From an uncultured Chlorobiota bacterium (GTDB lineage: Bacteria; Bacteroidota; Ignavibacteria; UBA10030; UBA6906), in assembly GCA_900696645.1 (NCBI GenBank), contig CAADGV010000041.1, positions 1-38,060 of the forward strand: a DNA stretch of 38,060 nucleotides, in the 5' to 3' direction. The notes under the pieces were generated by a model that was given only the letters and a program-made list of their open reading frames with translations, was not told the DNA's origin and did not search any database. Within the stretch, counting starts at the first letter, position 1. Every line of letters begins with the position of its first letter. Below, piece by piece: positions 2,930-15,093 of the stretch. The position numbers were made by a program, and so were the translations under genes.

Positions 2930-4210
2930 TTACTTCACACCCAACAACTCCACCAGCCACAAACTCAACCACGGAACGTAGGTAATAATGAGAAGTGCAA
3001 TGAGCAACATGCCGATATAGGGCAGCGTTGCGCGCACGATTGTGAAGACGGGCTTCTGAAACCGGATGCTTGAGATGAACAGATTCAAGCCCACGGGCGG
3101 TGTGAGATAACCGATTTCAAGGTTGGTAAGAAAGATAATTCCAAGATGAACCGGATGAACGCCATAGGCAACAGCAATCGGCAGAATAAGCGGAACAACA
3201 ACGATAATCGCGGAAAAAATATCCATCATCATTCCGACCAGAATCAGAAAGATATTCAACACAATCAGAAACATGATCGGATTAGTGATGAACGACTGCG
3301 TAAACTCGAACAGCTTCATCGGCACTTCGTTATCAACAAGATAGTTCGTCAGCCCCATTGCCGTTCCGATAATCATGAGAATGGCGCCAACCAGAACCAT
3401 ACTCTGCCGCATGACGCGGGGAATGTCGCGGAAGAAATGCAGATCCTTGTAGATGAACACTTCGACGATCAACACATAAAACGCCGTTACTGCCGCCGCC
3501 TCTGTTGCCGTGAACGTGCCGCTGTAAATTCCGCCAATCACGATGAAGGGCAACGGTATTTCCCACGCCGCTTCACGCACGGCACTCTTGACATTTGACC
3601 ACGTGAAGGGCACCGTCGGGACTTTTGCCTTTTTCCCCTGCCGGACACCATACACGGAGAGAATTGCCACAAGGAGAATTCCCGGAATCAGGCCCGCAGC
3701 AAACAACTGATCGATGCTCAGTTTTGCCGTGACAGAATAGAGAATCAGCGGAAGACTGGGAGGGAACAGCAATCCGAGACTTCCCGAAGTAGTGATCAGT
3801 CCGAGCGAAAATTTTTCCGGGTATTGTTCCTTGAGAAGGATGGGGAGAAGGAGCCCGCCGAGCGCAACAATCGTAACGCCCGACGCACCGGTGAAGGCAG
3901 TAAACAGCGCACAGGTAACGAGAGCAACAACGGAAAGACCTCCGCTGAGCGATCCGAAGAATGCACGGGCGAGATTGACGAGACGAACAGGAGTCTTGCT
4001 TTCGGCAAGAACGTAGCCGGCAAACGTAAACAACGGAATTGCCACGAGAGTCGGATTACTGCAAATGCGATACAGTTCCACAATGACAGCAGACGACTCG
4101 ATTCCCTCCGCGGCGAAACTCAGCATCGCAACGGCGCCGATAATGGCAAACAGCGGCGCCCCCAGCAACGCAAGCAGAAGAAGCAACAGGCCAATGACGA
4201 ACGTACTCAT
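2930..4210 (-). CDS. dctM: TRAP transporter large permease subunit DctM
   Basis: This 426-residue, highly hydrophobic protein is the 12-helix large membrane subunit of a tripartite ATP-independent periplasmic (TRAP) transporter, which carries the Na+-coupled translocation pathway. Family landmarks include the N-terminal LLLLLALLGAPLFAIIGAVAML, the segment IPLFTFAGYVLAES, GASGVTIVALGGLLLPIL (the conserved G-x-SG region), GSLGLLFPPSLPLILY and the C-terminal LGIIFLTNLEIGYLTPPVGLNLF. Length is normal. Its start overlaps the dctQ stop by four bases (ATGA at 4207-4210), which indicates translational coupling. It is the last gene of the tatT-dctP-dctQ-dctM operon. The substrate cannot be read from the sequence; DctP homologues mostly bind organic acids, but TatT-linked systems may carry hydrophobic ligands. 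Confidence 0.95.
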   Translation of the reverse strand: MSTFVIGLLLLLLALLGAPLFAIIGAVAMLSFAAEGIESSAVIVELYRICSNPTLVAIPLFTFAGYVLAESKTPVRLVNLARAFFGSLSGGLSVVALVTCALFTAFTGASGVTIVALGGLLLPILLKEQYPEKFSLGLITTSGSLGLLFPPSLPLILYSVTAKLSIDQLFAAGLIPGILLVAILSVYGVRQGKKAKVPTVPFTWSNVKSAVREAAWEIPLPFIVIGGIYSGTFTATEAAAVTAFYVLIVEVFIYKDLHFFRDIPRVMRQSMVLVGAILMIIGTAMGLTNYLVDNEVPMKLFEFTQSFITNPIMFLIVLNIFLILVGMMMDIFSAIIVVVPLILPIAVAYGVHPVHLGIIFLTNLEIGYLTPPVGLNLFISSIRFQKPVFTIVRATLPYIGMLLIALLIITYVPWLSLWLVELLGVK

Positions 4211-4710
4211 TGGACGGCAGGCCCCCCTTTCCCCGTCAGTTTCATTGCGTGTTCCGCAATCTTCACAGCGAAATGAAACGCCATCAACGCGTAGCCTGCG
4301 GGAATAACAATCAAGGCAATCCAGGTTGGCACGTTGAGCATGAAGTCACTGCCCGACGCTTTCTCATCAACCAAAAATGTCCACGAAGCGTCGGCAAGAT
4401 AGTAGCAGACGATGATGGCGAACAACGACGTAACGATACGCACACCATCCTGCCAGCGCGCAGACAAGAAGCGGGAGAATGCATCGATGCCGATGTGCCG
4501 TTCCTCATGGGCGGCAATCGCCGCGCCGATGAATCCCACCCAAATAACGAGATGGCGTACCAGCGGATCTGCCCAGAGAAATCCAATGCCAAAGACATTT
4601 CTCAACACAACCTGGGTGAACGCAAGAAGAATCATGGAAGAGAGAAAGAGAACGAGCAAGCCCGTTTCTATCTTTACCAGCAAGCGGTCCAGGGAACGGA
4701 GAAGGGTCAT
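4207..4710 (-). CDS. dctQ: TRAP transporter small permease subunit DctQ
   Basis: This 167-residue protein has four predicted membrane helices, as expected for the small TRAP subunit that pairs with DctM. The helices fall around LLVLFLSSMILLAFTQVVLR, HLVIWVGFIGAAIAAHEERH, IVTSLFAIIVCYYLADASW and WIALIVIPAGYALMAFHF. The motif FLWADPLVRHLVIWVGFIGAA and the following HEERHIGIDAFSRFL are classic DctQ features. The ATG at 4710 is chosen because the conserved N-terminus (MTLLRSLDRLLVKIE) begins there and the start overlaps the dctP stop (ATGA at 4707-4710). The reading frame stays open upstream but that part lies inside dctP in another frame and is not coding. Confidence 0.93.
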   Translation of the reverse strand: MTLLRSLDRLLVKIETGLLVLFLSSMILLAFTQVVLRNVFGIGFLWADPLVRHLVIWVGFIGAAIAAHEERHIGIDAFSRFLSARWQDGVRIVTSLFAIIVCYYLADASWTFLVDEKASGSDFMLNVPTWIALIVIPAGYALMAFHFAVKIAEHAMKLTGKGGPAVQ

Positions 4711-5720
4711 TTCGTCCCGGCGTTCTTGCCGCGGAATACGGCGAGGGATTTTTCGATTCTGTTCAGGAAATCCTGATCGTAGAATGTGCCGACGAGAGTC
4801 TGACGCGCTTTCTTGCCGGCCGCGACATATTCGTCGATCATTTTTTGGGAGGGCACATCGACAAGCTGAATGCCGCTTTTCTTCATTACTGCGATTGCGG
4901 CATCGTTTTCCTGGCGTGATTTCAGGGTAAGCTCGCGCATGAATTTCTTGCCGTTGCGCAGAAGAATCTCCTGCAAATCCGAAGGCAACTCGTCGAATTT
5001 CTTCTTCGTCATCACCACGGCACCGGATGCATCGGCGAGCGGCAGGTTCATCATGTATTTCACACGCGTATGCCACTGCAGTACCAGTGCCGCAAGCGGT
5101 GACGTGTAAGCTCCGTTGATGAGTCCCGTTTGCAGAGATGTCAGCACGTCAATAACCGAAAGCGGAATCGGACTGATGCCGAGCGCCCTGAACGTCGCCT
5201 CGGCAACCTTGTCCCCTTCCCACATCCACATCTTAACGCCGTTCATATCGGCAAGCGTCCGGACCGGTGTATTGGTCAGCACGTACACCCAACCGACCTC
5301 GGCCCAGCCGAGCAGCACGTAGCCGTTGTCGCGGAACGCCTTGTCGAATTCGTCGTCAAACATTGTGTAGATGTGATCGACTTCATCGTAGTTGTTGAAC
5401 AGAAACGGCGAGTCGAGAATGCGGACTTTCGGCGCAATATCACCGAGCCCGAAGCCCGTCAATCCGGCGCTGTGCAATTGGCCGAGCCGCATCTTGCGGA
5501 TGACATCCTTGTCCTCGCCCTGCACGCCTCCCGCGTAAATCCTGAAGCCCAACTTGCCGCCGCTTTCTTTCCGGATCGCCGCGTCGTATTCGCGCAGAAC
5601 ATTCGTCCACGTACTGCCGTCGGGCGCAAGCGAGGCGAACTTGATAATGTGTTGTTGGCTCTGTGCTGCTGATGCCAATACGAATAGGGAAAAGCCAACG
5701 GCAAGAATTCTCTTTTTCAT
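4707..5720 (-). CDS. dctP: TRAP transporter substrate-binding protein DctP
   Basis: The 337-residue protein has a typical signal peptide (MKKRILAVGFSLFVLASAAQSQ) and is the periplasmic solute receptor of the TRAP system. Family marks are IIKFASLAPDGSTW at the mature N-terminus, the GGVQGEDKDVIRKMRLGQLHSAG segment, LGWAEVGWVYVLTN, the ligand-gripping helix region GVKMWMWEGDKVAEATFRALGISPIPLSVIDVLTSLQTGLINGAYTSP (residues about 157-205), and the late KKKFDELPSDLQEILL. The usual family arginine that clamps a carboxylate is not obvious at its normal place, where KMWMWEGD stands instead. This supports a non-standard ligand, as proposed for TatT-linked systems. It lies 28 bases downstream of tatT and overlaps dctQ. 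Confidence 0.93.
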   Translation of the reverse strand: MKKRILAVGFSLFVLASAAQSQQHIIKFASLAPDGSTWTNVLREYDAAIRKESGGKLGFRIYAGGVQGEDKDVIRKMRLGQLHSAGLTGFGLGDIAPKVRILDSPFLFNNYDEVDHIYTMFDDEFDKAFRDNGYVLLGWAEVGWVYVLTNTPVRTLADMNGVKMWMWEGDKVAEATFRALGISPIPLSVIDVLTSLQTGLINGAYTSPLAALVLQWHTRVKYMMNLPLADASGAVVMTKKKFDELPSDLQEILLRNGKKFMRELTLKSRQENDAAIAVMKKSGIQLVDVPSQKMIDEYVAAGKKARQTLVGTFYDQDFLNRIEKSLAVFRGKNAGTK

Positions 5721-5748
5721 CAGATACCTTTTTGTCTATGTTAGACGA

Positions 5749-6609
5749 CTAAAACAACTCTTCCTTCATTTGCATCAACATCTTCGCCTTCTTTTTCGCT
5801 ATCGCGTTGCCGAGACGGAAGTTCGGCAGAATGTCGAGCGATGCGCTTTCAACATGTTTCAGCAATTCGTCGAACAGTTCCTCGTTCTGGGTCTGAAACG
5901 CATACGATTTTGCATAGTACACATGCGACATCAGGAACTTGCCTTGATTCAAACGCAGGGCTGTTTCGAAATGTTCCTTCGATTTGTCGGGATTGCCGCC
6001 GAGGAAGCGTGAGCGGCTTCCGTAGAGCGTACCGAGAAAAAGATGCGCGCCGCCGTAATAAAATGCGGAATCTTTTTCGGCAACGAAATTCATCATCACT
6101 TCAAGCTTCGGGATTGCGGCAATTGCTTCAGGATCCGTGAGCGTGATGTTGAGATATCCGCCCCACGGAAAAGCAGTCCAGAACACCGCCGGAACAAAGT
6201 CCTTTGATTTTTTGGCGAGTGCCGCCTTCAGATCATCAGCCGACCGTTCGAGCGCCTTCTTCACGTTTTTGTCCTGTTCCAAAATCCGCAATCCGTAATC
6301 ACGCCCCCGCAGGTAGAACACGCGTGCGCGTTCAACATCAACGTCCTCCACAAATCCCAATGCGTAACTTGCGTAGCCCTCGGCGCAGAGTCTCAGCAGG
6401 CGTTCGTTGTCGGGATCGTTCTTCAGCATCACTTCAAGTAGCTTGATGTTGGCGGGAAGCGCCTGCTCGGCAAACTGCAGATCGGATTCTTCGGTGAGCG
6501 CGTCGTACCCCTCTTCCACGATGCCACCGACGGAGCGGACGGCAATGGTTTGAATGCATCCGGTGAAGAGTAGAAGCGGGATAAACAGGAGTAGCTGGAG
6601 TGGTTTCAT
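5749..6609 (-). CDS. tatT: TatT-like TRAP-associated lipoprotein (T component of a TPAT transporter)
   Basis: The 286-residue protein has a lipoprotein signal ending in LLFTGC, so C18 should be lipidated. The body is an all-helical repeat protein of the TAtT family first characterised as Treponema pallidum Tp0956. Visible landmarks are the early helix QFAEQALPANIKLLEVMLKNDPDNERLLRLCAEGYASYALGFVED (family marks: NDP, AEGYASYA, F..D), a central GGAHLFLGTLYGSRSRFLGGNPDKSKEHFETAL and a C-terminal AKKKAKMLMQMKEELF. In Treponema the trimeric TatT binds the substrate receptor TatP and is thought to hand over a hydrophobic ligand. Here it is the first gene of the operon, 28 bases before dctP, which supports the same partnership. 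A TTGGAA/TATATT promoter lies just upstream. Family call is strong; ligand is unknown. Confidence 0.9.
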   Translation of the reverse strand: MKPLQLLLFIPLLLFTGCIQTIAVRSVGGIVEEGYDALTEESDLQFAEQALPANIKLLEVMLKNDPDNERLLRLCAEGYASYALGFVEDVDVERARVFYLRGRDYGLRILEQDKNVKKALERSADDLKAALAKKSKDFVPAVFWTAFPWGGYLNITLTDPEAIAAIPKLEVMMNFVAEKDSAFYYGGAHLFLGTLYGSRSRFLGGNPDKSKEHFETALRLNQGKFLMSHVYYAKSYAFQTQNEELFDELLKHVESASLDILPNFRLGNAIAKKKAKMLMQMKEELF

Positions 6610-6633
6610 CAGTCTTTCAGAATGTGCTCACAA

Positions 6634-6663
6634 AATATAGAGAGAAACGGGGAAAGATTCCAA
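6634..6663 (-). promoter_or_regulatory. Candidate promoter of the tatT-dctPQM operon
   Basis: Read on the minus strand, TTGGAA (6663-6658) and TATATT (6639-6634) are 18 bases apart, placing the transcript start about 18 bases before the tatT ATG. Confidence 0.5.
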
Positions 6664-6671
6664 GGCAGGCC

Positions 6672-6703
6672 TTTGCAACTCTTCAAAAATTGATTTACTT
6701 TTC
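6672..6703 (+). promoter_or_regulatory. Candidate promoter of the two-component operon
   Basis: TTGCAA at 6673-6678 and TACTTT at 6696-6701 have a 17-base spacer. The same stretch also fits the Bacteroidota pattern: TTTG at 6672-6675, then TACTTTTC (close to TAnnTTTG) 20 bases later. The start of transcription would be near 6708. Confidence 0.45.
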
Positions 6704-6770
6704 GCATGAACTCAAGAGCGGAGGCAACGTGCCGGAAGACAATCAACCCACACTCAACGTACACACGTCC

Positions 6771-7442
6771 ATGCGCATACTGGTTGTGGAAGATGAAAAA
6801 AAAGTGGCCAAGTTCATCCAGCAGGGACTGGAGGAGGAACATTACGCCGTTGACGTGGCCCACGACGGTGAAAAGGGTTTGCAGATGGCGTTGAACGAGA
6901 ACTACGATGTCATGATTCTCGATGTGATGTTGCCGAAGATGAGCGGATTGGAACTCATCAAGGCGGTACGCGCAAAGCAGAAGACAACGCCCACCCTCAT
7001 GCTCACAGCAAAGGCAACAACCGAGGACAAGGTTGCTGGTCTTGACAGCGGTGCGGATGATTATCTGACGAAGCCGTTTGCGTTTGAAGAACTGGTTGCC
7101 CGCGTCCGTTCACTGCTGCGCCGCGGTGCGCAGGAAAAATCCACGATCCTAAAAGTTGCCGACCTCGAGCTCGACACCGTGACGCACAAAGCCAAGCGGG
7201 CAGGCAAAACAATCGAGTTGACGGCAAAGGAATACTCGCTGCTGGAGTACTTCATGCGCAACCGTGATCGCGTACTCAGCCGCACGATCATTTCCGAGCA
7301 TATCTGGGATTACAACTTCGATACAGGCACGAACATCATTGACGTGTACGTCAATCATCTCCGCAACAAAATTGATGAAGGATTCGACCCGAAGCTGATA
7401 CATACTGTACGCGGTGTCGGGTATGTGATGAAGGAAGGATAA
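6771..7442 (+). CDS. OmpR/PhoB-family response regulator
   Basis: The 223-residue protein has a receiver domain (residues 1-115) with the acidic pair in MRILVVEDE, the phosphoacceptor D51 in MILDVMLP, the conserved T in LMLTAKATTEDKVAGLDSGADDYLTKPFAFEEL and the lysine of the TKPF motif. A winged-helix DNA-binding domain follows (about 125-223) with ELTAKEYSLLEYFMRNRDRVLSR and the recognition region TNIIDVYVNHLRNKID. It is a transcription factor activated by the kinase encoded 3 bases downstream. The ATG at 6771 matches the canonical N-terminus but has no clear ribosome site. A GTG at 6729, four bases after GGAGG, would add fourteen residues and cannot be excluded. The three 11-bp repeats at 8949-8981 are the best candidate binding site. 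Confidence 0.95.
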   Translation: MRILVVEDEKKVAKFIQQGLEEEHYAVDVAHDGEKGLQMALNENYDVMILDVMLPKMSGLELIKAVRAKQKTTPTLMLTAKATTEDKVAGLDSGADDYLTKPFAFEELVARVRSLLRRGAQEKSTILKVADLELDTVTHKAKRAGKTIELTAKEYSLLEYFMRNRDRVLSRTIISEHIWDYNFDTGTNIIDVYVNHLRNKIDEGFDPKLIHTVRGVGYVMKEG

Positions 7443-7445
7443 ACC

Positions 7446-8927
7446 GTGGCGTTTTGGTATCAATCCATCCGCACAAGACTTACCGTCTGGTACACATTGC
7501 TTGTGCTCGTTACGCTTGTTGCGTTCGGGCTTGCCGCCTATTACTACACACGCAACCAGCTCTCCAACAATCTCGACATCTCCCTCAAAAGCGAAGTCCG
7601 TTGGGTGAAGGATTTCATCTCCCCCCAGGCAAGCAAGGTAAAGCCGAGCAAGCAATCCATTGATGCGTTGCTGCGCAAAAAGTCAACGACATTTCCGCAG
7701 CGCTTCATCGGGCCCATGTTGCCCGAATCTCCCGAAACGGAAGAGGCCGATGAAATCTGGAATCATATCTTCAAGCACTCACTCGTCAGCCAGAAGAAGA
7801 CGTTCATACAGGTGGAGGACAAGAAAGGTGATGTCATCTACCGCAACTACAGTCTCGGCTCGGACAGTCTCGCCGCCCCCGACGACCTTCCGCTCGACAC
7901 GACGATCGTCGTAACGACGCTGTTGGGTGGCGAGCAGTTGCGTGCCGCAATGTATAAGGATCAGAACTTCACGATACTTGTCGCATACTCGTTGAGCGAG
8001 TTGGGAGACGTGCTGGAGAATCTTTTTGCAATCTTTCTGTATCTCATTCCGATTGCCGTTGCGCTTTCGGTTCTCGGCGGATTGTATCTCGCTAACAAGG
8101 CCCTTGCTCCGGTGGATGACGTGACGCGTCGTGCAAGAAAGATTACCGCGGAAAGTCTCGACCAATCCATCCCTCCCCGCGACGTTGATGATGAAATCGG
8201 GCGGCTTATCAGCACAATGAACGAGATGATCCGCCGCTTGCACGGCTCGTTTGCGCAAACCCGGCAGTTCTCGTCCGATGCATCACATGAACTGCGTACG
8301 CCACTCACCATTATGCGGGGGGAGATTGAACTTGCATTGCGTAATGAAAAAACGCCGACGGAATATCGCGAAATCCTTTCCAGCACACTCGAGGAAATCC
8401 TACGCCTTAAGTCAATTATCGACAACCTTCTCACACTCGGCAAGGCCGATCATGGTGTGCTTGACCTGAAGCTTGAAGAAGTACATCTTGATTCTCTTAT
8501 CAAAGATCTGTTTGACGACAGCGAAATGCTCGCCGAATCCAAGCGGATTCACGTCGAGTTGAAGAACGCTGAACCCGTGACGATTGTGGGAGACAAAGGA
8601 CGGCTGCACCAACTGTTCCTCAATATCGTTGACAACGCAATCAAATACACTCCGCAGGGCGGACACGTGGCGATTTCCGTTCAGCGGCAGAACGGCTCGG
8701 CGTTGGTTGAAGTGGAGGATGACGGTATCGGCATTCCTGAACAGGATATTGACAAGATCTTCGATCGCTTCTATCGTGTTGACAAAGCACGCTCGCGGGA
8801 GATGGGCGGTACGGGACTCGGCCTTTCCATCGCCAAATGGATTGCGGAAATTCACAGGGGAACCATTACCGTGGAAAGCGAGGTTGACAAGGGAAGCAAA
8901 TTCTCGGTAACCATTCCGATCAACTGA
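7446..8927 (+). CDS. Membrane sensor histidine kinase
   Basis: The 493-residue protein has a first membrane helix at about residues 12-33, a periplasmic sensor region of about 155 residues, a second helix at about 192-215 and a HAMP linker. A HisKA domain follows with the phosphorylation site H281 in SHELRTPLTIMRGE, then an ATPase domain with the N box DNAIKYTP (about 396-403), G1 DDGIGIP, F box FDRFYRVD and G2 GGTGLGLSIAKWI. All catalytic motifs are intact. The start is a GTG 3 bases after the regulator stop, with AAGGA just upstream, so the two are cotranscribed and coupled. The periplasmic domain has no motif that I recognise, so the signal is unknown. Metal, phosphate and envelope-stress sensing are all possible. 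Confidence 0.94.
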   Translation: MAFWYQSIRTRLTVWYTLLVLVTLVAFGLAAYYYTRNQLSNNLDISLKSEVRWVKDFISPQASKVKPSKQSIDALLRKKSTTFPQRFIGPMLPESPETEEADEIWNHIFKHSLVSQKKTFIQVEDKKGDVIYRNYSLGSDSLAAPDDLPLDTTIVVTTLLGGEQLRAAMYKDQNFTILVAYSLSELGDVLENLFAIFLYLIPIAVALSVLGGLYLANKALAPVDDVTRRARKITAESLDQSIPPRDVDDEIGRLISTMNEMIRRLHGSFAQTRQFSSDASHELRTPLTIMRGEIELALRNEKTPTEYREILSSTLEEILRLKSIIDNLLTLGKADHGVLDLKLEEVHLDSLIKDLFDDSEMLAESKRIHVELKNAEPVTIVGDKGRLHQLFLNIVDNAIKYTPQGGHVAISVQRQNGSALVEVEDDGIGIPEQDIDKIFDRFYRVDKARSREMGGTGLGLSIAKWIAEIHRGTITVESEVDKGSKFSVTIPIN

Positions 8928-8948
8928 CGCGGCTCCGATTAAGCATCT

Positions 8949-8991
8949 TTAACGGGAGCGTAACAAGAGCTTAACGTTCAGCCGGTATATT
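8949..8991 (+). promoter_or_regulatory. Three 11-bp direct repeats plus -10: activator-type promoter
   Basis: Three copies of a (T/G)TAAC core start at 8949, 8960 and 8971, exactly 11 bases apart, giving TTAACG, GTAACA and TTAACG separated by five bases. TATATT at 8986-8991 follows 10 bases after the last core, and no -35 hexamer is present. This is the architecture of a class II promoter bound by an OmpR/PhoB/PhoP-type regulator as tandem dimers. It resembles the Bacillus PhoP TT(A/T/C)ACA repeats. The regulator encoded at 6771-7442 is the natural candidate. Confidence 0.6.
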
Positions 8992-9055
8992 AGCATGACG
9001 AGTGAGCAAGCCTCATTCTTCATTTTTGTTCAACCAATATCCAAGAGGATGTATT

Positions 9056-9586
9056 ATGAAGAGTCTGGTTGTTGCAGTTGCAGTGCTGTTTGCAGCGAGC
9101 GCAGTAGCACAAGATGCCCCCAAGCCTGCCGATGCGGCAAAAACGCAGGTGCAGGAGAAGGCGGCGGAAGTGAAAACGCAGGGAGAGAAGAAAGCCGCTG
9201 AAGCAAAGATCGGGGCTGAGAAAAAGGGGCCGGAAGCCGTCAAGACTGTGACCGGCAAGAAAGAGCCGGTGAAGCAGGCAACTGAGGAGATGATCAAGAA
9301 AGAAGAAGGAACCACGGATGTTGACCCTCCGGTGAAGGATGCACCCGCAACGCCGGCAGTCGAGAAGAAAGCAGCGGGAGCCGTAAAGACTGTAACCGGA
9401 AAGGCGGGAGAAGCCAAGCATGCAACCGACGAAATGATTCAGAAGAAACAGAGCAAGCCCGACGCTGACCAGGCCGTCAAGGAATCAGCGGCAAAGCCTG
9501 CTGTTGAGAAGAAGGCTGTTGAACAAAAGAAAATGCTCAAGAAGGCAACGGATAAAAAGGACGAAGCAAAGAAGGAAGTGAAATAG
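9056..9586 (+). CDS. Exported Lys/Ala/Glu-rich repeat protein
   Basis: No family is recognised. The 176-residue product has a clear signal peptide (MKSLVVAVAVLFAASAVAQ), with likely cleavage near residue 19. The mature part is low in complexity, made mostly of K, A, E, V, T and P, and should be extended or helical and strongly charged. It holds a tandem duplication with a 48-residue period: AVKTVTGK at 61-68 and 109-116, ATEEMI / ATDEMI at 75-80 and 123-128, and AVEKKA at 101-106 and 149-154. The ATG at 9056 is chosen because AGAGGA lies 6 bases upstream and the signal peptide begins there. It follows the kinase gene by 128 bases and has its own promoter with 11-bp repeats, then a terminator. 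I infer a periplasmic or surface target of the adjacent two-component system. Confidence 0.8.
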   Translation: MKSLVVAVAVLFAASAVAQDAPKPADAAKTQVQEKAAEVKTQGEKKAAEAKIGAEKKGPEAVKTVTGKKEPVKQATEEMIKKEEGTTDVDPPVKDAPATPAVEKKAAGAVKTVTGKAGEAKHATDEMIQKKQSKPDADQAVKESAAKPAVEKKAVEQKKMLKKATDKKDEAKKEVK

Positions 9587-9615
9587 CTGACCCGGTTTGT
9601 CCCGGTGCAGTTTCA

Positions 9616-9641
9616 GGGTCATCATGCGATGTCCCTTTTTT
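9616..9641 (+). terminator. Intrinsic terminator after the repeat protein
   Basis: GGGTCATC and GATGTCCC pair around a four-base loop (one T.T mismatch) and are followed by six T. It lies 30 bases after the stop at 9586. Confidence 0.75.
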
Positions 9642-9654
9642 GTTTAGCCCGCCG

Positions 9655-9691
9655 GAAAACAAAAAAGGCCCCATCGTTCGGTGGGGCTTTT
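9655..9691 (-). terminator. Bidirectional intrinsic terminator between convergent genes
   Basis: GCCCCA (9668-9673) pairs with TGGGGC (9682-9687) around an 8-base loop. On the minus strand the stem is followed by a long T-rich run (complement of 9655-9666); on the plus strand by TTTT. It mainly serves the minus-strand gene ending at 9715. Confidence 0.8.
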
Positions 9692-9714
9692 AAGTCTCTC
9701 TTCCATCCTCAAAA

Positions 9715-12700
9715 TCAAAAATCTGCACCGAGTGAGAGGTAATACTTCGGCTCGCTGAACCCGCTCCAGTACCATGCCCACGCCACATCGAGCTTCACGA
9801 GGAAGCCGAGGAAGTAGATGCGCGTGCCTGTTCCCATGCCCATAAGCAGATCGCGGGTGACGGTATATCCGCGTGCATCTTTCGTGAATGCCTTGAACTC
9901 GTTCTCCCGGTTCCACGCGGCGCCCATATCGAAGAAGATAGCGCCATTGATGCTCTGCAGCCCGATAGGAAGCGGGCCCGCCTGCAAGAATGCAAACAGC
10001 GGATAACGGAACTCGAAGTTGAACAAGCCGTACTTCGAACCAATGCCGGCATTGAAGTTATACCCGCGAAGCGGAAGTCCGGTTTGCAAGAAGATGTAAT
10101 CCTCGGCATTCTCCAGAGGAATGTAGCCTCCTTCAAACGTCCGGTTGATCCAATTATCAACGCCGCCAATAATGAACTTCTGCGGATTGCGACCGAAGCT
10201 TCCGCCACCTGCAAGTCGCAGAGCTATGTTGTACTGCCGGCCGAGACGCAAGTACGTTCTGTAGTCGCCTGTCACGTTCACAAAACTGAGTCCGGCCGAG
10301 CCGAGTTTCGGAGTGCCGAACACATTGAACGAATAGCGTGTACCGTTAATCGGGCCCGTAAATCCCCACAACGAATTGTCATGCGTATAGCCGATGGAGG
10401 GAACGAGAGTTGTCCGCTTCTGCGTTGGATCAGCAATCTGATCGAGATTCTCGCGTGAAATGTTGAACCAACTCAATCCCGCATCAAACCGTCTGAACCT
10501 GTCGATCGGATATTGGGCGTTAAGCGAAACGCCGTATGTACGGAACCGGTACAGGCTCCCGCCAAACACATCATTGATGATGACGAAACGGGCGCTGTGA
10601 AATGCGGTGAATCCGTAATCGATTCGTTCAGGAAGATAGAGATACTGCAGCGCATAGTCGCTGTTCTTGAGATCGAGCAGCAGGTTCGTGACAAACACGA
10701 TCTGGTGGTTTCCCAGCAAATCGCTGAACGCCATTACTGTCGAGCCGGTAACACCGTAGAACGTATTGTACCCTGCGTTGCCGTAGATGATATCAGGCGA
10801 GAAATTGAGCTTGTACTTGTTGACTTTGTATCGTCCCTCACTGTCGATATTGCCGGCAATTCTCGGTAGGCGCGATACAATAGTTGAATCCGAAGGGACA
10901 TTGTCGGGCAGAATATCGCCTGCAAAACCGCTGAAATCTATTTCAATATCCTTGCCGTACAGACCGACGGAATCGGCAGGCGCGGCGGTAACGGCAACCG
11001 TGTCCTTCATCTCCGGTGCAGCAGGCGCGGCGAGTTTCGCCTTGAAGAACTCCGTCAGCTCCAACTCACCCACCTTCAACTCGCGCTCGAACGGATTACG
11101 CATCAGGAACAGGTCGAACCCGGCATGATGCAGTGAAGCAAACGCAAGCTTTGAACCGTCACGCGAAAGCGACAACTGGTACACGCCGGTCAGCGAGTTG
11201 GTAATGGGGCGTGTTGCCCTCGTTTCGAGAACCATCTCGTAGATGTTGCTGATGCCGTTCTTGTCGGATACGAACAGGATCTTCTTTCCGTCCGCAGACA
11301 CCACAACGGAAGATTCGTTACTGTTCGGCCAATCCGTCAGTTGCTCGATTTCCAGCGTCTCCGTATTGACGCGATAGAGATTGCGATGCGAGTAATCAAA
11401 GGTCGCCATATCCACCGATTCTCCACGTACGTAGTCCTGACGGTCGGACGAGAAATACACAAACTTTCCGTCGTGAGACCAGGTTGGATCGGAATCGGAG
11501 AAAACATCCCTGGTCAGCGCAGTCAATTTCTTCGAATCAATATCATAAGAGTAAATATCCGAGCGTTCGAACTTGTTTCCCACAAACGCCAGCTTGTTTC
11601 CCTGCGGGGACCAATCGACCGAGTAGATGGCGTTCAGATCGAATGTCAGTTTCTCGCTGCTGCCGCTTTCAACATCGATCATCAAGATAGCATCTTGCGC
11701 GCCGGCTTTTGCCGCCAGCGCAATCAACTTCCCATCCGGAGACCAGGTGAGCCTCGGCGTAAGAAGCTTCAGTTCTTCAAAATCGTTCGTCGTCTGCCCG
11801 CTCACTACTTTGTCGATATCCTTCCCGTCGATCGTGTTCATCACAAACACGTCGAAGTAATCCTTTCGGTCGGAAATGAATGCGAGCCTGTCACCCTGCG
11901 GTGAGAGGGCGGGGCTTGTGTTGTAGAAGTTACCGTCCTTTTTATGGTCGGTCAGCCTGCGGGCGTAGTCGGTGGGTTCCTCGCGCTTGGCAATGTCGGG
12001 CCAGTAAAGAACTTTCATTTCTTTCTGCCAGCGTTCGTTCAATTCTTCAAGACTCAATCCCAACGCCCCGCGGAAGCCTGCCTCGACATTGCGCGTGCTT
12101 TTTATTCGATTGAGGATGTCGCCGATTTTCTGCTCGCCGTATTTGTTTGAAATGTACCACCAAAGTGCTTGCCCGCCGCGATAGGCGAAATATCCGCTCA
12201 GCCTGTTAATCGGGGGGAGATAGTTGTGGACTGTTGCATCACGCAGAAACATGTCGGAGTCCGTCTCCCATCGTTGCGCCTCATATTCTGAGATCCCTTC
12301 ATTGAGCCAGAGCGGAAGTTGAAGCGTGATGTTGTTGGCGATAATGGATTGGATGGAGCCGCCGTAGAACATATCGTTGATGACGGCGTGAACAAGCTCG
12401 TGGTGGATAACGTGACGGAACTGCTTGTAATTCCCTTCGAACGGAACAAGCACGCGGTTCTTGAACAATTCCGTTACGCCGCCGACACCCTCTTCAAGGT
12501 ACACACTGACAACGTTGTTTTGTTGAAAGTCGTTGTGTGAATTCGCGACAATAATGGGAACGCGGTTCGTGAGCTGGTAACGGAATGTTTTTCTGATGGA
12601 TGCGTAGGCAGATTCGGCAGCCGAAGCGGCGAATTCGGCTATCTTCTCGCCGCCGTCGGAGAAGTAGATATCGAAGTGATCAGTTTGGATGAAGTACCAG

Positions 12701-12822
12701 TTGAACTTCGTGTACTGTACTTTGTTCTTGCCGAACAAACCATCCTGCGCGTAGCCCGTTGCGGACATCATCAGCATTGCCAGCAGCAGCAGCCCCCTCA
12801 TCACACTCCCACGCACTTTCAT
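9715..12822 (-). CDS. Outer-membrane protein with HExxH peptidase-like domain, WD40-like propeller and beta-barrel
   Basis: The 1035-residue protein has a signal peptide (MRGLLLLAMLMMSATGYAQ). An N-terminal peptidase-MA-like domain follows, with the zinc motif HELVH (H141, E142, H145) and a downstream NEGISEYE (third ligand probably E175). Residues about 300-650 hold repeated TolB/PD40-type propeller blades (LTWSPDGKLIAL, VDWSPQGNKLAFVGN, PTWSHDGKFVYFSSDRQD and others). The C-terminal third (from about 730) looks like an outer-membrane barrel related to the Omp85/surface-antigen fold, with FIIGGVDNWINR, LPLRGYNF and FEFRYPLFAF, and ends in F. The ATG at 12822 has GAGGA just upstream; a second ATG at 12801 is possible. 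Such fusions occur in FCB genomes without known function. Proteolysis at the cell surface is inferred from the intact motif. Confidence 0.85.
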   Translation of the reverse strand: MKVRGSVMRGLLLLAMLMMSATGYAQDGLFGKNKVQYTKFNWYFIQTDHFDIYFSDGGEKIAEFAASAAESAYASIRKTFRYQLTNRVPIIVANSHNDFQQNNVVSVYLEEGVGGVTELFKNRVLVPFEGNYKQFRHVIHHELVHAVINDMFYGGSIQSIIANNITLQLPLWLNEGISEYEAQRWETDSDMFLRDATVHNYLPPINRLSGYFAYRGGQALWWYISNKYGEQKIGDILNRIKSTRNVEAGFRGALGLSLEELNERWQKEMKVLYWPDIAKREEPTDYARRLTDHKKDGNFYNTSPALSPQGDRLAFISDRKDYFDVFVMNTIDGKDIDKVVSGQTTNDFEELKLLTPRLTWSPDGKLIALAAKAGAQDAILMIDVESGSSEKLTFDLNAIYSVDWSPQGNKLAFVGNKFERSDIYSYDIDSKKLTALTRDVFSDSDPTWSHDGKFVYFSSDRQDYVRGESVDMATFDYSHRNLYRVNTETLEIEQLTDWPNSNESSVVVSADGKKILFVSDKNGISNIYEMVLETRATRPITNSLTGVYQLSLSRDGSKLAFASLHHAGFDLFLMRNPFERELKVGELELTEFFKAKLAAPAAPEMKDTVAVTAAPADSVGLYGKDIEIDFSGFAGDILPDNVPSDSTIVSRLPRIAGNIDSEGRYKVNKYKLNFSPDIIYGNAGYNTFYGVTGSTVMAFSDLLGNHQIVFVTNLLLDLKNSDYALQYLYLPERIDYGFTAFHSARFVIINDVFGGSLYRFRTYGVSLNAQYPIDRFRRFDAGLSWFNISRENLDQIADPTQKRTTLVPSIGYTHDNSLWGFTGPINGTRYSFNVFGTPKLGSAGLSFVNVTGDYRTYLRLGRQYNIALRLAGGGSFGRNPQKFIIGGVDNWINRTFEGGYIPLENAEDYIFLQTGLPLRGYNFNAGIGSKYGLFNFEFRYPLFAFLQAGPLPIGLQSINGAIFFDMGAAWNRENEFKAFTKDARGYTVTRDLLMGMGTGTRIYFLGFLVKLDVAWAWYWSGFSEPKYYLSLGADF

Positions 12823-12859
12823 ATAATCCTCACAAACTGATTGAAAGAACATCAATAAA

Positions 12860-12888
12860 ATACTAACAAAGTCAGGCGGAAAATGCAA
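12860..12888 (-). promoter_or_regulatory. Promoter with CGTTGCATTT -35 (peptidase/propeller gene)
   Basis: On the minus strand TTGCAT (12888-12883) and TAGTAT (12865-12860) are 17 bases apart, and transcription would start about 30 bases before the ATG at 12822. The -35 lies in the 10-mer CGTTGCATTT (12890-12881), identical to those before rfaE1 and ppiD. Confidence 0.6.
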
Positions 12889-12902
12889 CGAAAGAATGGC
12901 GA

Positions 12903-12921
12903 CCGGAGGCGTTTCCTCCGG
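12903..12921. terminator. Perfect 7-bp hairpin after rnr
   Basis: CCGGAGG and CCTCCGG flank a 5-base loop, 31 bases beyond the rnr stop and just upstream of the next promoter. There is no proper T-run on either strand, so termination is plausible but not certain; it could instead protect an mRNA end. Confidence 0.45.
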
Positions 12922-12951
12922 GCCGTATGACACGTGATGCCTGCCGCTGGT

Positions 12952-15093
12952 TTATCGTACAACAGCAAAATCTATCTCGCGAGTTTCCGGGTTGACAGAG
13001 ACTACTCGAACGCGCACAGTGTCGCCAAGTCTGTACACTTTGCCGCGCGAACGTCCCTTCAGTTGGTACCGTTTTTCGTCAAACAGGTAGTAATCGTCCT
13101 CCAAATCACGAACGCGAATCAATCCCTGCACCAACAGATCATTAATCTCCACAAACATGCCAAACGTCGTGACGCCCGAAATAACCCCCTCGAACTCGTC
13201 GCCGAGGTGGCGTTTCATATATTCCGCCTGCATGACTTTGACCGATTCGCGCTCGGCTTCGGCCGCGACCCGTTCACGGTCTGAGGATTGCTTGCAGATT
13301 GCGGAAAGTTGCTTTGCCATTCCGGCGCGGCGCCCGGCGCCCATTCCTTGCTCGTATTCATACAACAAGCGATGGACGACGAGATCGGGATACCGCCGGA
13401 TGGGGGAAGTGAAGTGTGTATAGTATTTGAACGCCAAACCGAAATGCCCGATGTTTTTTTCAGAGTAAACGGCCTTGGCCATTGAGCGCAACGCGACTTC
13501 GTTGATGACGGTTTCGACCTCCGAACCTTTCACCTTGTCGAGCAGCTTCTGCAACTGCAAAGCGCTTACGCCGTGCTTTGTGTCGAGTGAATAGCCGAAC
13601 TGCTTCACGAAGTTTCCGAGATCTTCAAGCCGTGACGGGTCGGGAACATCATGCACCCGATAGATGAACGGCTTTTCGTGTTCCTCCTTCCTGACTTTGC
13701 CGATATGCTCGGCAACGATTTTGTTGGCAAGCAACATGCATTCTTCAACAAGGCGGTGAGCGTCAAGCCGTGTCTTTTTGATGATATCGGAAGGAAACCC
13801 TTGTGCGTCGAACTTGAATTTGGCTTCGCCCGTATCGAAGTCGATGCTTCCCTTCTTACGGCGTTGAGCGGTAAGTAGTTGTGTGAATGCGTGCAGCGGC
13901 AGCAACATGTCGGAAAGCTCGCCCTTCCCGCGTTCGATAATAGCTTGAACCTCCTCGTACGTGAAACGCTGAGCGCTATGAATGACCGTCTTCGCAATCT
14001 GATACTGCTCGATCTTCCCGCTCTTCGTTACTTCCATCAACACGCTGTAGGTAAGGCGATCGACGTTCGGACGAAGGCTGCAAATGTTATTGGAGAGACG
14101 TTCCGGCAGCATCGGAATCACTTCGTTGACCATATACACGCTTGTTCCGCGCAGCAACGCCTCGGCATCGAGCACCGAGCCTTCCTTCACATAGTGGCTC
14201 ACATCGGCGATGTGAACACCGAGCCGGTAGTTTCCGTTCTTCAGCGGCTCGAACGAAACGGCATCGTCGAAATCCTTGGCGTCTTCCGGATCGATTGTCA
14301 CGCACACAACCGGGCGGAGATCGAGCCGCGTCGCAATGTCGCTTGCAGAAACAACATCACTCAAAGCATTTGACTCGTGTTCAACAGCAGGCGGAAAACT
14401 CATCGGCAAACCGAAACTGCGCGCCACGCTCAACACTTCCACCCGCGCATCGCCCGAACGCCCGAGCGTTTCAATGATTGTTCCTTCCGGGTTCTGTGCC
14501 GGATCATCCCAGGGAAACAACTTCACAACAACCTTGTCGCCGTGCTGCGACTGCTTCGCATCTTCCGCCGAAACATACACATCACGCGAGATGCGCTCAT
14601 CATCGGGCTTGACGAAGAAGAAATTCCGGCTTCGTTGCAAGGTGCCGACAATTGTGCTTGTACGCCGCTCGACAATTTCAACAATTTCTCCTTCGGCCTT
14701 ATCTTGATCATTCCGCCCCCGTCTTCTCATCGGCTGTGCAAGAAGGGCGATCACCACTTTATCGCCATGCAATGCGGTGCCCATGAATTTTTCGGAAATG
14801 AAAACTTCAGTATCTGTTCCTTCAAGTTTGACAAAGCCGAACCCGCGACGTGTGACACTGAGCGTACCGACCAGTCGGTTGGTCGGGCTTTTCGGTTTAC
14901 CGGATTTCGTTTTCTTCTGCTTGACGTAACCTATCCGTCCCTGTTCATCGGATTGGATGATGCCCTTGCGGTCAAGTTCATCCACGATCGAGCGCAAATG
15001 GCTGTATTCATCCTTTGTTTTGATCTTGAGATGCGTGACAAGCTCTTTGAGGGTGAATGCCTGCGAGGGATTCTCGGAAAGAAAACCGAGCAA
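12952..15093 (-). CDS. rnr: Ribonuclease R
   Basis: The 713-residue protein is a 3'-5' exoribonuclease of the RNase II/R family, which degrades structured RNA in the cytoplasm. Domains in order are an N-terminal winged-helix-like region (1-60), cold-shock domains (about 70-220), the RNB catalytic domain (about 240-570) with the metal-binding DPEDAKDFDDAV around residues 267-278 and HFTSPIRRYPDLVVHR later, and an S1 domain (about 620-705, EFEGVISGVTTFGMFVEI). The C-terminus lacks the long basic tail seen in some RNase R proteins. The start is uncertain: TTG at 15093 begins the conserved LGFLSENPSQAF segment but has no good ribosome site, and no ATG or GTG lies upstream in frame before the tamB stop. 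It follows tamB by 62 bases and is probably the last gene of the rfaE1-rfaE2-tamB-rnr unit. Confidence 0.94.
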   Translation of the reverse strand: MLGFLSENPSQAFTLKELVTHLKIKTKDEYSHLRSIVDELDRKGIIQSDEQGRIGYVKQKKTKSGKPKSPTNRLVGTLSVTRRGFGFVKLEGTDTEVFISEKFMGTALHGDKVVIALLAQPMRRRGRNDQDKAEGEIVEIVERRTSTIVGTLQRSRNFFFVKPDDERISRDVYVSAEDAKQSQHGDKVVVKLFPWDDPAQNPEGTIIETLGRSGDARVEVLSVARSFGLPMSFPPAVEHESNALSDVVSASDIATRLDLRPVVCVTIDPEDAKDFDDAVSFEPLKNGNYRLGVHIADVSHYVKEGSVLDAEALLRGTSVYMVNEVIPMLPERLSNNICSLRPNVDRLTYSVLMEVTKSGKIEQYQIAKTVIHSAQRFTYEEVQAIIERGKGELSDMLLPLHAFTQLLTAQRRKKGSIDFDTGEAKFKFDAQGFPSDIIKKTRLDAHRLVEECMLLANKIVAEHIGKVRKEEHEKPFIYRVHDVPDPSRLEDLGNFVKQFGYSLDTKHGVSALQLQKLLDKVKGSEVETVINEVALRSMAKAVYSEKNIGHFGLAFKYYTHFTSPIRRYPDLVVHRLLYEYEQGMGAGRRAGMAKQLSAICKQSSDRERVAAEAERESVKVMQAEYMKRHLGDEFEGVISGVTTFGMFVEINDLLVQGLIRVRDLEDDYYLFDEKRYQLKGRSRGKVYRLGDTVRVRVVSVNPETREIDFAVVR

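What the first reader, a model, noticed from the sequence alone, without database searches (positions are those of the whole stretch)
6771..9586. Two-component system linked to a repeat-protein gene through three 11-bp boxes
Directly seen: (T/G)TAAC cores at 8949, 8960 and 8971, exactly 11 bases apart, then TATATT 10 bases later and no -35 hexamer, in front of a gene for an exported K/A/E-rich protein directly after a complete regulator-kinase pair. OmpR/PhoB/PhoP-family regulators are known to bind tandem repeats of about 11 bp that replace the -35. I infer that the exported protein is a direct target, so the three genes form a small sensing and response unit whose effector belongs to no family I know.
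Basis: partly seen in the sequence, partly recalled or inferred. Interest (0 to 1): 0.66.

Follow-up and report, generated by a model that had tools for sequence, protein, structure and literature searches.

The report
Kinase-regulator pair controlling lysine-rich exported protein
A bacterial sensor-regulator gene pair sits beside a gene for a small exported lysine-rich protein, and the same three parts plus the same four-part DNA switch recur in distantly related Bacteroidota, so this looks like a real but undescribed envelope-response module whose trigger and effector function are unknown.

Summary
In detail: KTAAC cores at 8949, 8960 and 8971, then TATATT at 8986. A fourth half-site (TTAAG, 8939) was missed. 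The 3-box promoter is the only exact match in the 4.2-Mb genome. The first test threatened the interpretation: the same triple core is the order's Pho box, upstream of pst and porin genes. But the two box types differ. Pho boxes have four half-sites spaced 11-11-11; this promoter is spaced 10-11-11, lacks the Pho flanks, and is conserved in G000, G001, G009 and G028. Relatives chosen by kinase or regulator alone show box and lysine-rich gene occurring together: in family f1, 3/3 with the gene carry the box and 0/16 without it; in families f14/f24, 15/15 box-Krich-RR loci. A strict box search over 395 phylum genomes gave 13 hits and no control hits; 11 precede lysine-rich exported genes and the other two lie in such loci. 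The linked regulator is therefore the likely direct activator, autoregulatory in f14/f24. The effector is a Cys-, Trp- and Arg-free, net-positive, low-complexity protein in no Pfam or NCBIfam family; probably a disordered periplasmic protector (Asr-like). No binding, expression or function was measured.

The parts
6771..7442 (+). OmpR/PhoB-family response regulator, 223 aa (Response_reg + Trans_reg_C); TIGR01387 heavy-metal RR subfamily
   Evidence: 290.6 bits vs cut-off 279.2
7446..8927 (+). membrane sensor histidine kinase, 493 aa (HAMP, HisKA, HATPase_c); CusS-like, just below the TIGR01386 cut-off
   Evidence: 289.3 vs 292.55; match at E<=1e-60 in 51 of 60 relatives
   Evidence: same offset in G001, G009, G028
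8949..8953 (+). half-site 1, TTAAC
8960..8964 (+). half-site 2, GTAAC (11 bp after box 1)
8971..8975 (+). half-site 3, TTAAC (11 bp after box 2)
8986..8991 (+). TATATT, TAnnTT-type -7/-10 element, 10 bp after box 3
   Evidence: same spacing in relatives
9056..9586 (+). exported low-complexity K/A/E-rich protein, 176 aa, with two 45-aa repeats; no Cys, Trp, Arg or Tyr; net about +8
   Evidence: no Pfam or NCBIfam family
6672..6701 (+). candidate promoter of RR-HK (TTTG-n20-TACTTT) without TTAA boxes
   Evidence: read from sequence; consensus only, not tested
9668..9691 (+). terminator-like hairpin GCCCCATCGTTCGGTGGGGC + T run after the effector gene
   Evidence: read from sequence; not tested

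Best explanation
RR and HK form one two-component system. When the periplasmic sensor of HK is stimulated (signal unknown; the RR/HK subfamily suggests metal or another envelope stress), RR~P occupies four head-to-tail half-sites at 8939, 8949, 8960 and 8971, probably as two dimers. It then recruits RNA polymerase to a promoter that has TATATT but no upstream hexamer, switching on the exported lysine-rich protein. In f14/f24 the same box precedes Krich-RR, so there the circuit probably also drives its own regulator. The effector most likely works as a disordered, basic periplasmic shield or chaperone, like E. coli Asr. SHOWN: parts, spacing, conservation, co-occurrence, motif specificity. INFERRED: binding by the linked RR, activation, effector function (Asr-like mode about 0.4 on its own). 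The confidence below is for the regulatory part.
For: Four half-sites with 10-11-11-10 spacing identical in G000, G001, G009 and G028, 0 mismatches each, at kinase identities of 97, 63 and 49%. In the own order's roughly 96 genomes only six matches at <=2 mismatches, five of them directly downstream of the orthologous HK. HK-selected loci: boxes (0-3 mismatches) only in front of a small exported gene: G000, G001, G009, G028, G023 and three f20 genomes, each 0/100 shuffles; none at the loci without such a gene. RR-selected loci in f14/f24: 15 of 15 loci with a K-rich gene have the box in front of it; of 5 without, one has the box in front of RR (Fisher about 0.001, worked by hand). Strict box, 395 phylum genomes: 13 hits, 0 control hits, 11 in front of K-rich genes; RR within 1.5 kb at 8 of these loci. 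Box class differs from Pho boxes in first spacing and flanks. Recognition helices: YVNHLR/YINKLR with TTAA boxes; YIRRLR in f20 and HVKNLR in L218, where half-sites shift to TTCAT. K. pneumoniae PmrA, same RR family, binds CTTAAT/CCTAAG head-to-tail half-sites (PMC3973317).
Against: No binding, expression or mutant data. f5 genomes keep RR-HK-Krich with TTGAC-type promoters and no boxes; f12 has only a degenerate fourth site. The triple core is also the local Pho box, so PhoB could bind here as well. The RR-HK pair is much more widespread than the effector, so this is not its only job. Characterised members of the RR subfamily (CusR, CopR, CzcR) bind palindromes, not tandem repeats (PMC11195947). 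The helix-box covariation rests on three groups only.
Confidence: 0.8

Rival explanations
1. The boxes are a Pho box: PhoB, encoded on contig 14 next to pst genes, activates the lysine-rich gene under phosphate starvation, and the adjacency to RR-HK is incidental (compare E. coli asr, which I recall as PhoBR-controlled).
For: KTAAC triplets 10 bp before TAnnTT mark PstS, PstC, Porin_O_P-like and other Pho genes throughout the order. The only other exact two-box + TAnnTT match in this genome is the promoter at the Pho locus.
Against: Pho boxes carry the fourth half-site at 11 bp (22 of 26 perfect, 25 of 26 with at least 4 of 5 bases) with a TTAACAATTTC unit; the HK-linked boxes carry it at 10 bp (4 of 4) and score at or below the low end of the Pho flank distribution. 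The lysine-rich gene and its box lie next to this RR at 15 of 20 RR loci in f14/f24.
Confidence: 0.12
2. Both regulators bind: the linked RR is primary and PhoB or another OmpR-family RR cross-activates through the shared KTAAC half-sites.
For: Same half-site core and same distance to TAnnTT as in Pho boxes. Cross-regulation at a shared site by three RRs is documented for CusR/CopR/CzcR (PMC11195947).
Against: Different first spacing and flanks; no direct data.
Confidence: 0.25
3. Effector as metal sponge: the pair is a CusRS-like metal sensor and the exported protein sequesters metal, as SilE or PcoE does.
For: RR passes and HK nearly passes the heavy-metal TCS models. In f4 the box precedes an exported protein with a CxHH...CxxCG motif resembling HMBD (14.4 bits, below the 23.6 cut-off). 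f5 and some f24 effectors are Met- or His-containing. sil has silRS and silE as separate promoters (PMC5008109).
Against: The window effector has no Cys, about 1% His and 2% Met, and f14 genus g81 versions have essentially none. The conserved feature is Lys, not metal ligands.
Confidence: 0.2
4. Effector as feedback partner of HK: the exported basic protein binds the periplasmic sensor domain and damps the kinase, as CpxP does for CpxA.
For: Where the box-linked effector occurs it usually lies beside its RR-HK pair.
Against: The effector sequence diverges freely between families while HK stays conserved; RR-HK often occurs without the effector.
Confidence: 0.12

Closest known systems
silRS-silE / pcoRS-pcoE (CusRS-type metal systems with an exported disordered protein)
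   Same: CusR/CusS-like RR-HK pair next to a small exported, disordered protein gene with its own promoter (PMC5008109); narrow regulon
   Different: SilE/PcoE are rich in His/Met metal ligands (ten conserved His); here Lys/Ala/Glu. CusR-type boxes are palindromes (PMC11195947), here four tandem half-sites. No efflux genes in the part of the window examined (about 3000-14000).
Asr of E. coli (acid shock protein)
   Same: small exported low-complexity basic protein, disordered chaperone (PMC10746267); RR-controlled (from memory: RstA/PhoB)
   Different: no Pfam or NCBIfam link; no direct sequence comparison was made; asr is not, to my knowledge, encoded directly next to its two-component system; here His-poor and Glu-rich
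PmrA (BasR) and QseB boxes
   Same: TTAA half-sites repeated every 11 bp (CTTAAG-n5-nTTAAT for PmrA, PMC3973317; QseB from memory)
   Different: PmrA boxes have two half-sites; here four with a 10-bp first step and a TAnnTT element at 10 bp. RR scores 187.9 vs cut-off 330 for PmrA.
Pho box / PhoB of the same order
   Same: KTAAC half-sites at 11 bp ending 10 bp before TAnnTT
   Different: 11-11-11 rather than 10-11-11, with a conserved TTAACAATTTC unit; PhoB of this genome is 40% identical to RR and has a different recognition helix

Membership tests
OmpR/PhoB-family response regulator, TIGR01387 heavy-metal subfamily | receiver + winged-helix domains, score above curated cut-off | tested here: met
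   290.6 bits vs 279.2; PF00072 + PF00486
CusR/CopR/CzcR-type regulation | palindromic binding site | tested here: not met
   linked promoter has tandem half-sites; palindrome described in PMC11195947
TIGR01386 heavy-metal sensor kinase | score above curated cut-off | tested here: not met
   289.3 vs 292.55 bits, marginally below
Pho box / Pho regulon | half-sites at 11-11-11 with TTAACAATTTC first unit | tested here: not met
   fourth half-site at 10 bp in 4/4 versus 11 bp in Pho sites
Pho regulon | phosphate- and PhoB-dependent expression | not testable with these tools
   needs expression data
SilE/PcoE | His/Met-rich metal-binding motifs | tested here: not met
   composition of mature protein: His about 1%, Met 2%, no Cys
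Asr | match to a curated family model | tested here: not met
   no Pfam or NCBIfam match for the effector
Asr-like mode of action | disordered chaperone, acid-induced | not testable with these tools
   AlphaFold job for the effector did not return before reporting; needs biochemistry
HMBD proteins (f4 effector only) | PF19335 above gathering score | tested here: not met
   14.4 vs 23.6 bits for G028; no PF19335 hit for G023

The most novel reading that the evidence does not exclude
A class-wide envelope-stress system of Bacteroidota in which a CusRS-like two-component system is dedicated mainly to one target, a fast-evolving polylysine-type disordered periplasmic protein, through a distinct four-half-site 10-11-11-10 box. 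The conserved property of the effector is charge and disorder rather than sequence.
Probability: 0.5. Interest if true: 0.65.

Novelty: new variant of a known kind. Interest (0 to 1): 0.52.

Why it matters
It gives an almost ready-made regulon test in poorly studied Bacteroidota lineages: one regulator, one clear binding site, one main target. It also exposes a conserved exported lysine-rich protein class that homology searches miss, because only composition and promoter are kept. It separates two look-alike box types (10-11-11 and Pho 11-11-11) that would be merged by a simple TTAAC scan.

Tried and rejected
(1) Finding the effector by sequence: only G000 and G001 seen among 60 relatives; conservation became visible only by looking beside the kinase. 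(2) Reading the triple box as specific to this RR: rejected after the order-wide scan showed it is also the Pho box; resolved by the first spacing. (3) Boxes near RR-HK in relatives without the effector: none's loci. (4) Kinase structure prediction (pLDDT 68) and Foldseek: only generic HK cores (CusS and HprS among them), no ligand hint. (5) Rfam: nothing in the window. (6) Effector structure prediction: submitted, not returned. (8) Naming the organism: not possible; nearest named records are Bacteroidota, Ignavibacteria and Kapabacteria MAGs. (9) Literature searches for a lysine-rich protein with a two-component system in these lineages: none found in the held library. (10) The automated K-rich filter missed G009 because its gene carries a run of N, and put the f4 exported genes among those without K-rich, so the Fisher value printed there (p 0.01) is not the one used; counts were corrected by reading. 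(11) One script ended with an error after the quoted values were printed.

Full report
OBSERVATION. The window is contig 41 of a 4.2-Mb genome. RR 6771-7442, HK 7446-8927 and the K/A/E-rich exported ORF 9056-9586 are as described. KTAAC cores lie at 8949, 8960 and 8971 and TATATT at 8986. There is also TTAAG at 8939, 10 bp before box 1. In the whole genome the triple box has one exact match, this promoter; at up to 2 mismatches there are 92 matches against 160 control matches, so only the exact match is informative.

COMPLICATION. A two-box + TAnnTT scan gave exactly two exact matches in G000 and two orthologous ones in G001: this promoter and one at a locus with PhoB, PhoR, a TonB-dependent receptor, a porin, two PstS, PstC, PstA and PstB (names from reading the translations). 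An order-wide scan (60 genomes) of the triple box returned about 85 sites, with no control hits in the own family; most lie in front of PstS, PstC, phosphate-porin-like, PiT and TonB-receptor genes. So the triple KTAAC box is this order's Pho box, and one genome alone could not say that the neighbouring RR binds at 8949-8975.

RESOLUTION. Aligned Pho sites have a fourth half-site 11 bp upstream (22 of 26 perfect), usually inside a TTAACAATTTC unit. The sites after HK in G000, G001, G009 and G028 have it at 10 bp (4 of 4), and their flanks score at or below the low end of the Pho range. Searching 391 class genomes with the 10-11-11-10 pattern (up to 2 mismatches) gave, in the own order, six hits: G000, G001, G009, G028 (0 mismatches), G023 (2) and one in G003 (1); all but the last lie directly after the orthologous kinase. 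Outside the order, most of the 30 hits examined lie in front of small exported lysine-rich proteins, many followed by the RR orthologue.

TESTS THAT DO NOT SELECT ON THE BOX. Kinase-selected loci: f1 has the box in the three genomes with the lysine-rich gene and in none of 16 loci without it; f4 G028 and G023 and all three f20 loci have it; f3 and f6 have neither. Regulator-selected loci in f14 and f24: 15 of 20 have box-Krich-RR, one has the box in front of RR, four have neither box nor K-rich gene. The strict pattern over 395 phylum genomes: 13 hits, none with the reversed control, none outside the class; 11 precede K-rich genes, the other two precede a TPR and a HEAT-like gene in the same loci. 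f5 is an exception: RR-HK-Krich with TTGAC-type promoters. f12 keeps three clear half-sites.

REGULATOR. RR belongs to the CusR/CzcR subfamily by TIGR01387, HK falls just under TIGR01386. Families with TTAA boxes have recognition helices Y(V/I)N(H/K)LR or close variants; f20, whose box mixes TTAAT and TTCAT, has Y(I/V)RRLR; L218, with TTCAT three times at 11 bp after its kinase, has HVKNLR; PhoB of this genome has HISKIR. This covariation is suggestive, with three groups only. Tandem TTAA half-sites bound head-to-tail are known for PmrA (PMC3973317) and direct-repeat half-sites for the family in general (PMC3264566), whereas CusR-type regulators bind palindromes (PMC11195947).

EFFECTOR. Across 28 box-linked proteins: 73-176 aa, signal-peptide-like N-terminus, mature part 20-42% Lys, no Cys, almost no Arg or Trp, net +9 to +23 (+8 for the window protein with its own cleavage point); Glu, Ala, Thr, Met and His vary. 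No Pfam or NCBIfam family for the window protein; no Pfam family for an f14 member. In f4 the place is taken by an exported protein with a CxHH...CxxCG motif, weakly HMBD-like. The constant property is a soluble, charged, probably disordered polycation in the periplasm (disorder is inferred from composition). I favour an Asr-like protective chaperone or shield; a SilE-like metal role is possible in lineages with Met/His or the HMBD-like variant; a CpxP-like feedback role is possible.

VERDICT. New relative to it: the fourth half-site, the separation from Pho boxes, the class-wide recurrence, the autoregulatory gene order elsewhere, and lineages that lack the box or the effector.

Noticed in passing
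L088 about 4990-5032 and about 9920-9972 (G000 contig 14): Pho boxes of this lineage: KTAAC-type half-sites at 11-bp steps ending 10 bp before TAnnTT, in front of Pho transport genes across the order; two adjacent PstS paralogues follow.
   Followed up: partly
L190, L192, L329 (f24); L189/L328 (f24): A second exact or near-exact 10-11-11-10 box in front of a 98-aa TPR protein, or of a 152-aa exported HEAT-like protein, in the same loci as box-Krich-RR: possible further targets.
   Followed up: no
L122 / L164 (f4): Exported CxHH...CxxCG (HMBD-like) protein in the place of the lysine-rich protein, behind the same box.
   Followed up: partly
L218 5411-5463: TTCAT three times at 11-bp spacing directly after an RR-HK pair with a different recognition helix; no lysine-rich ORF recognised there.
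   Followed up: no
window 2930-6609, minus strand: TRAP transporter genes (DctM-, DctQ- and DctP-like) with a TAtT (TRAP T-component, PF16811) gene upstream of RR.
   Followed up: no
L023, L027, L028, L031, L302, L303 (f5): Lysine/methionine-rich exported genes after the same RR-HK pair but with TTGAC-type promoters and no boxes.
   Followed up: partly
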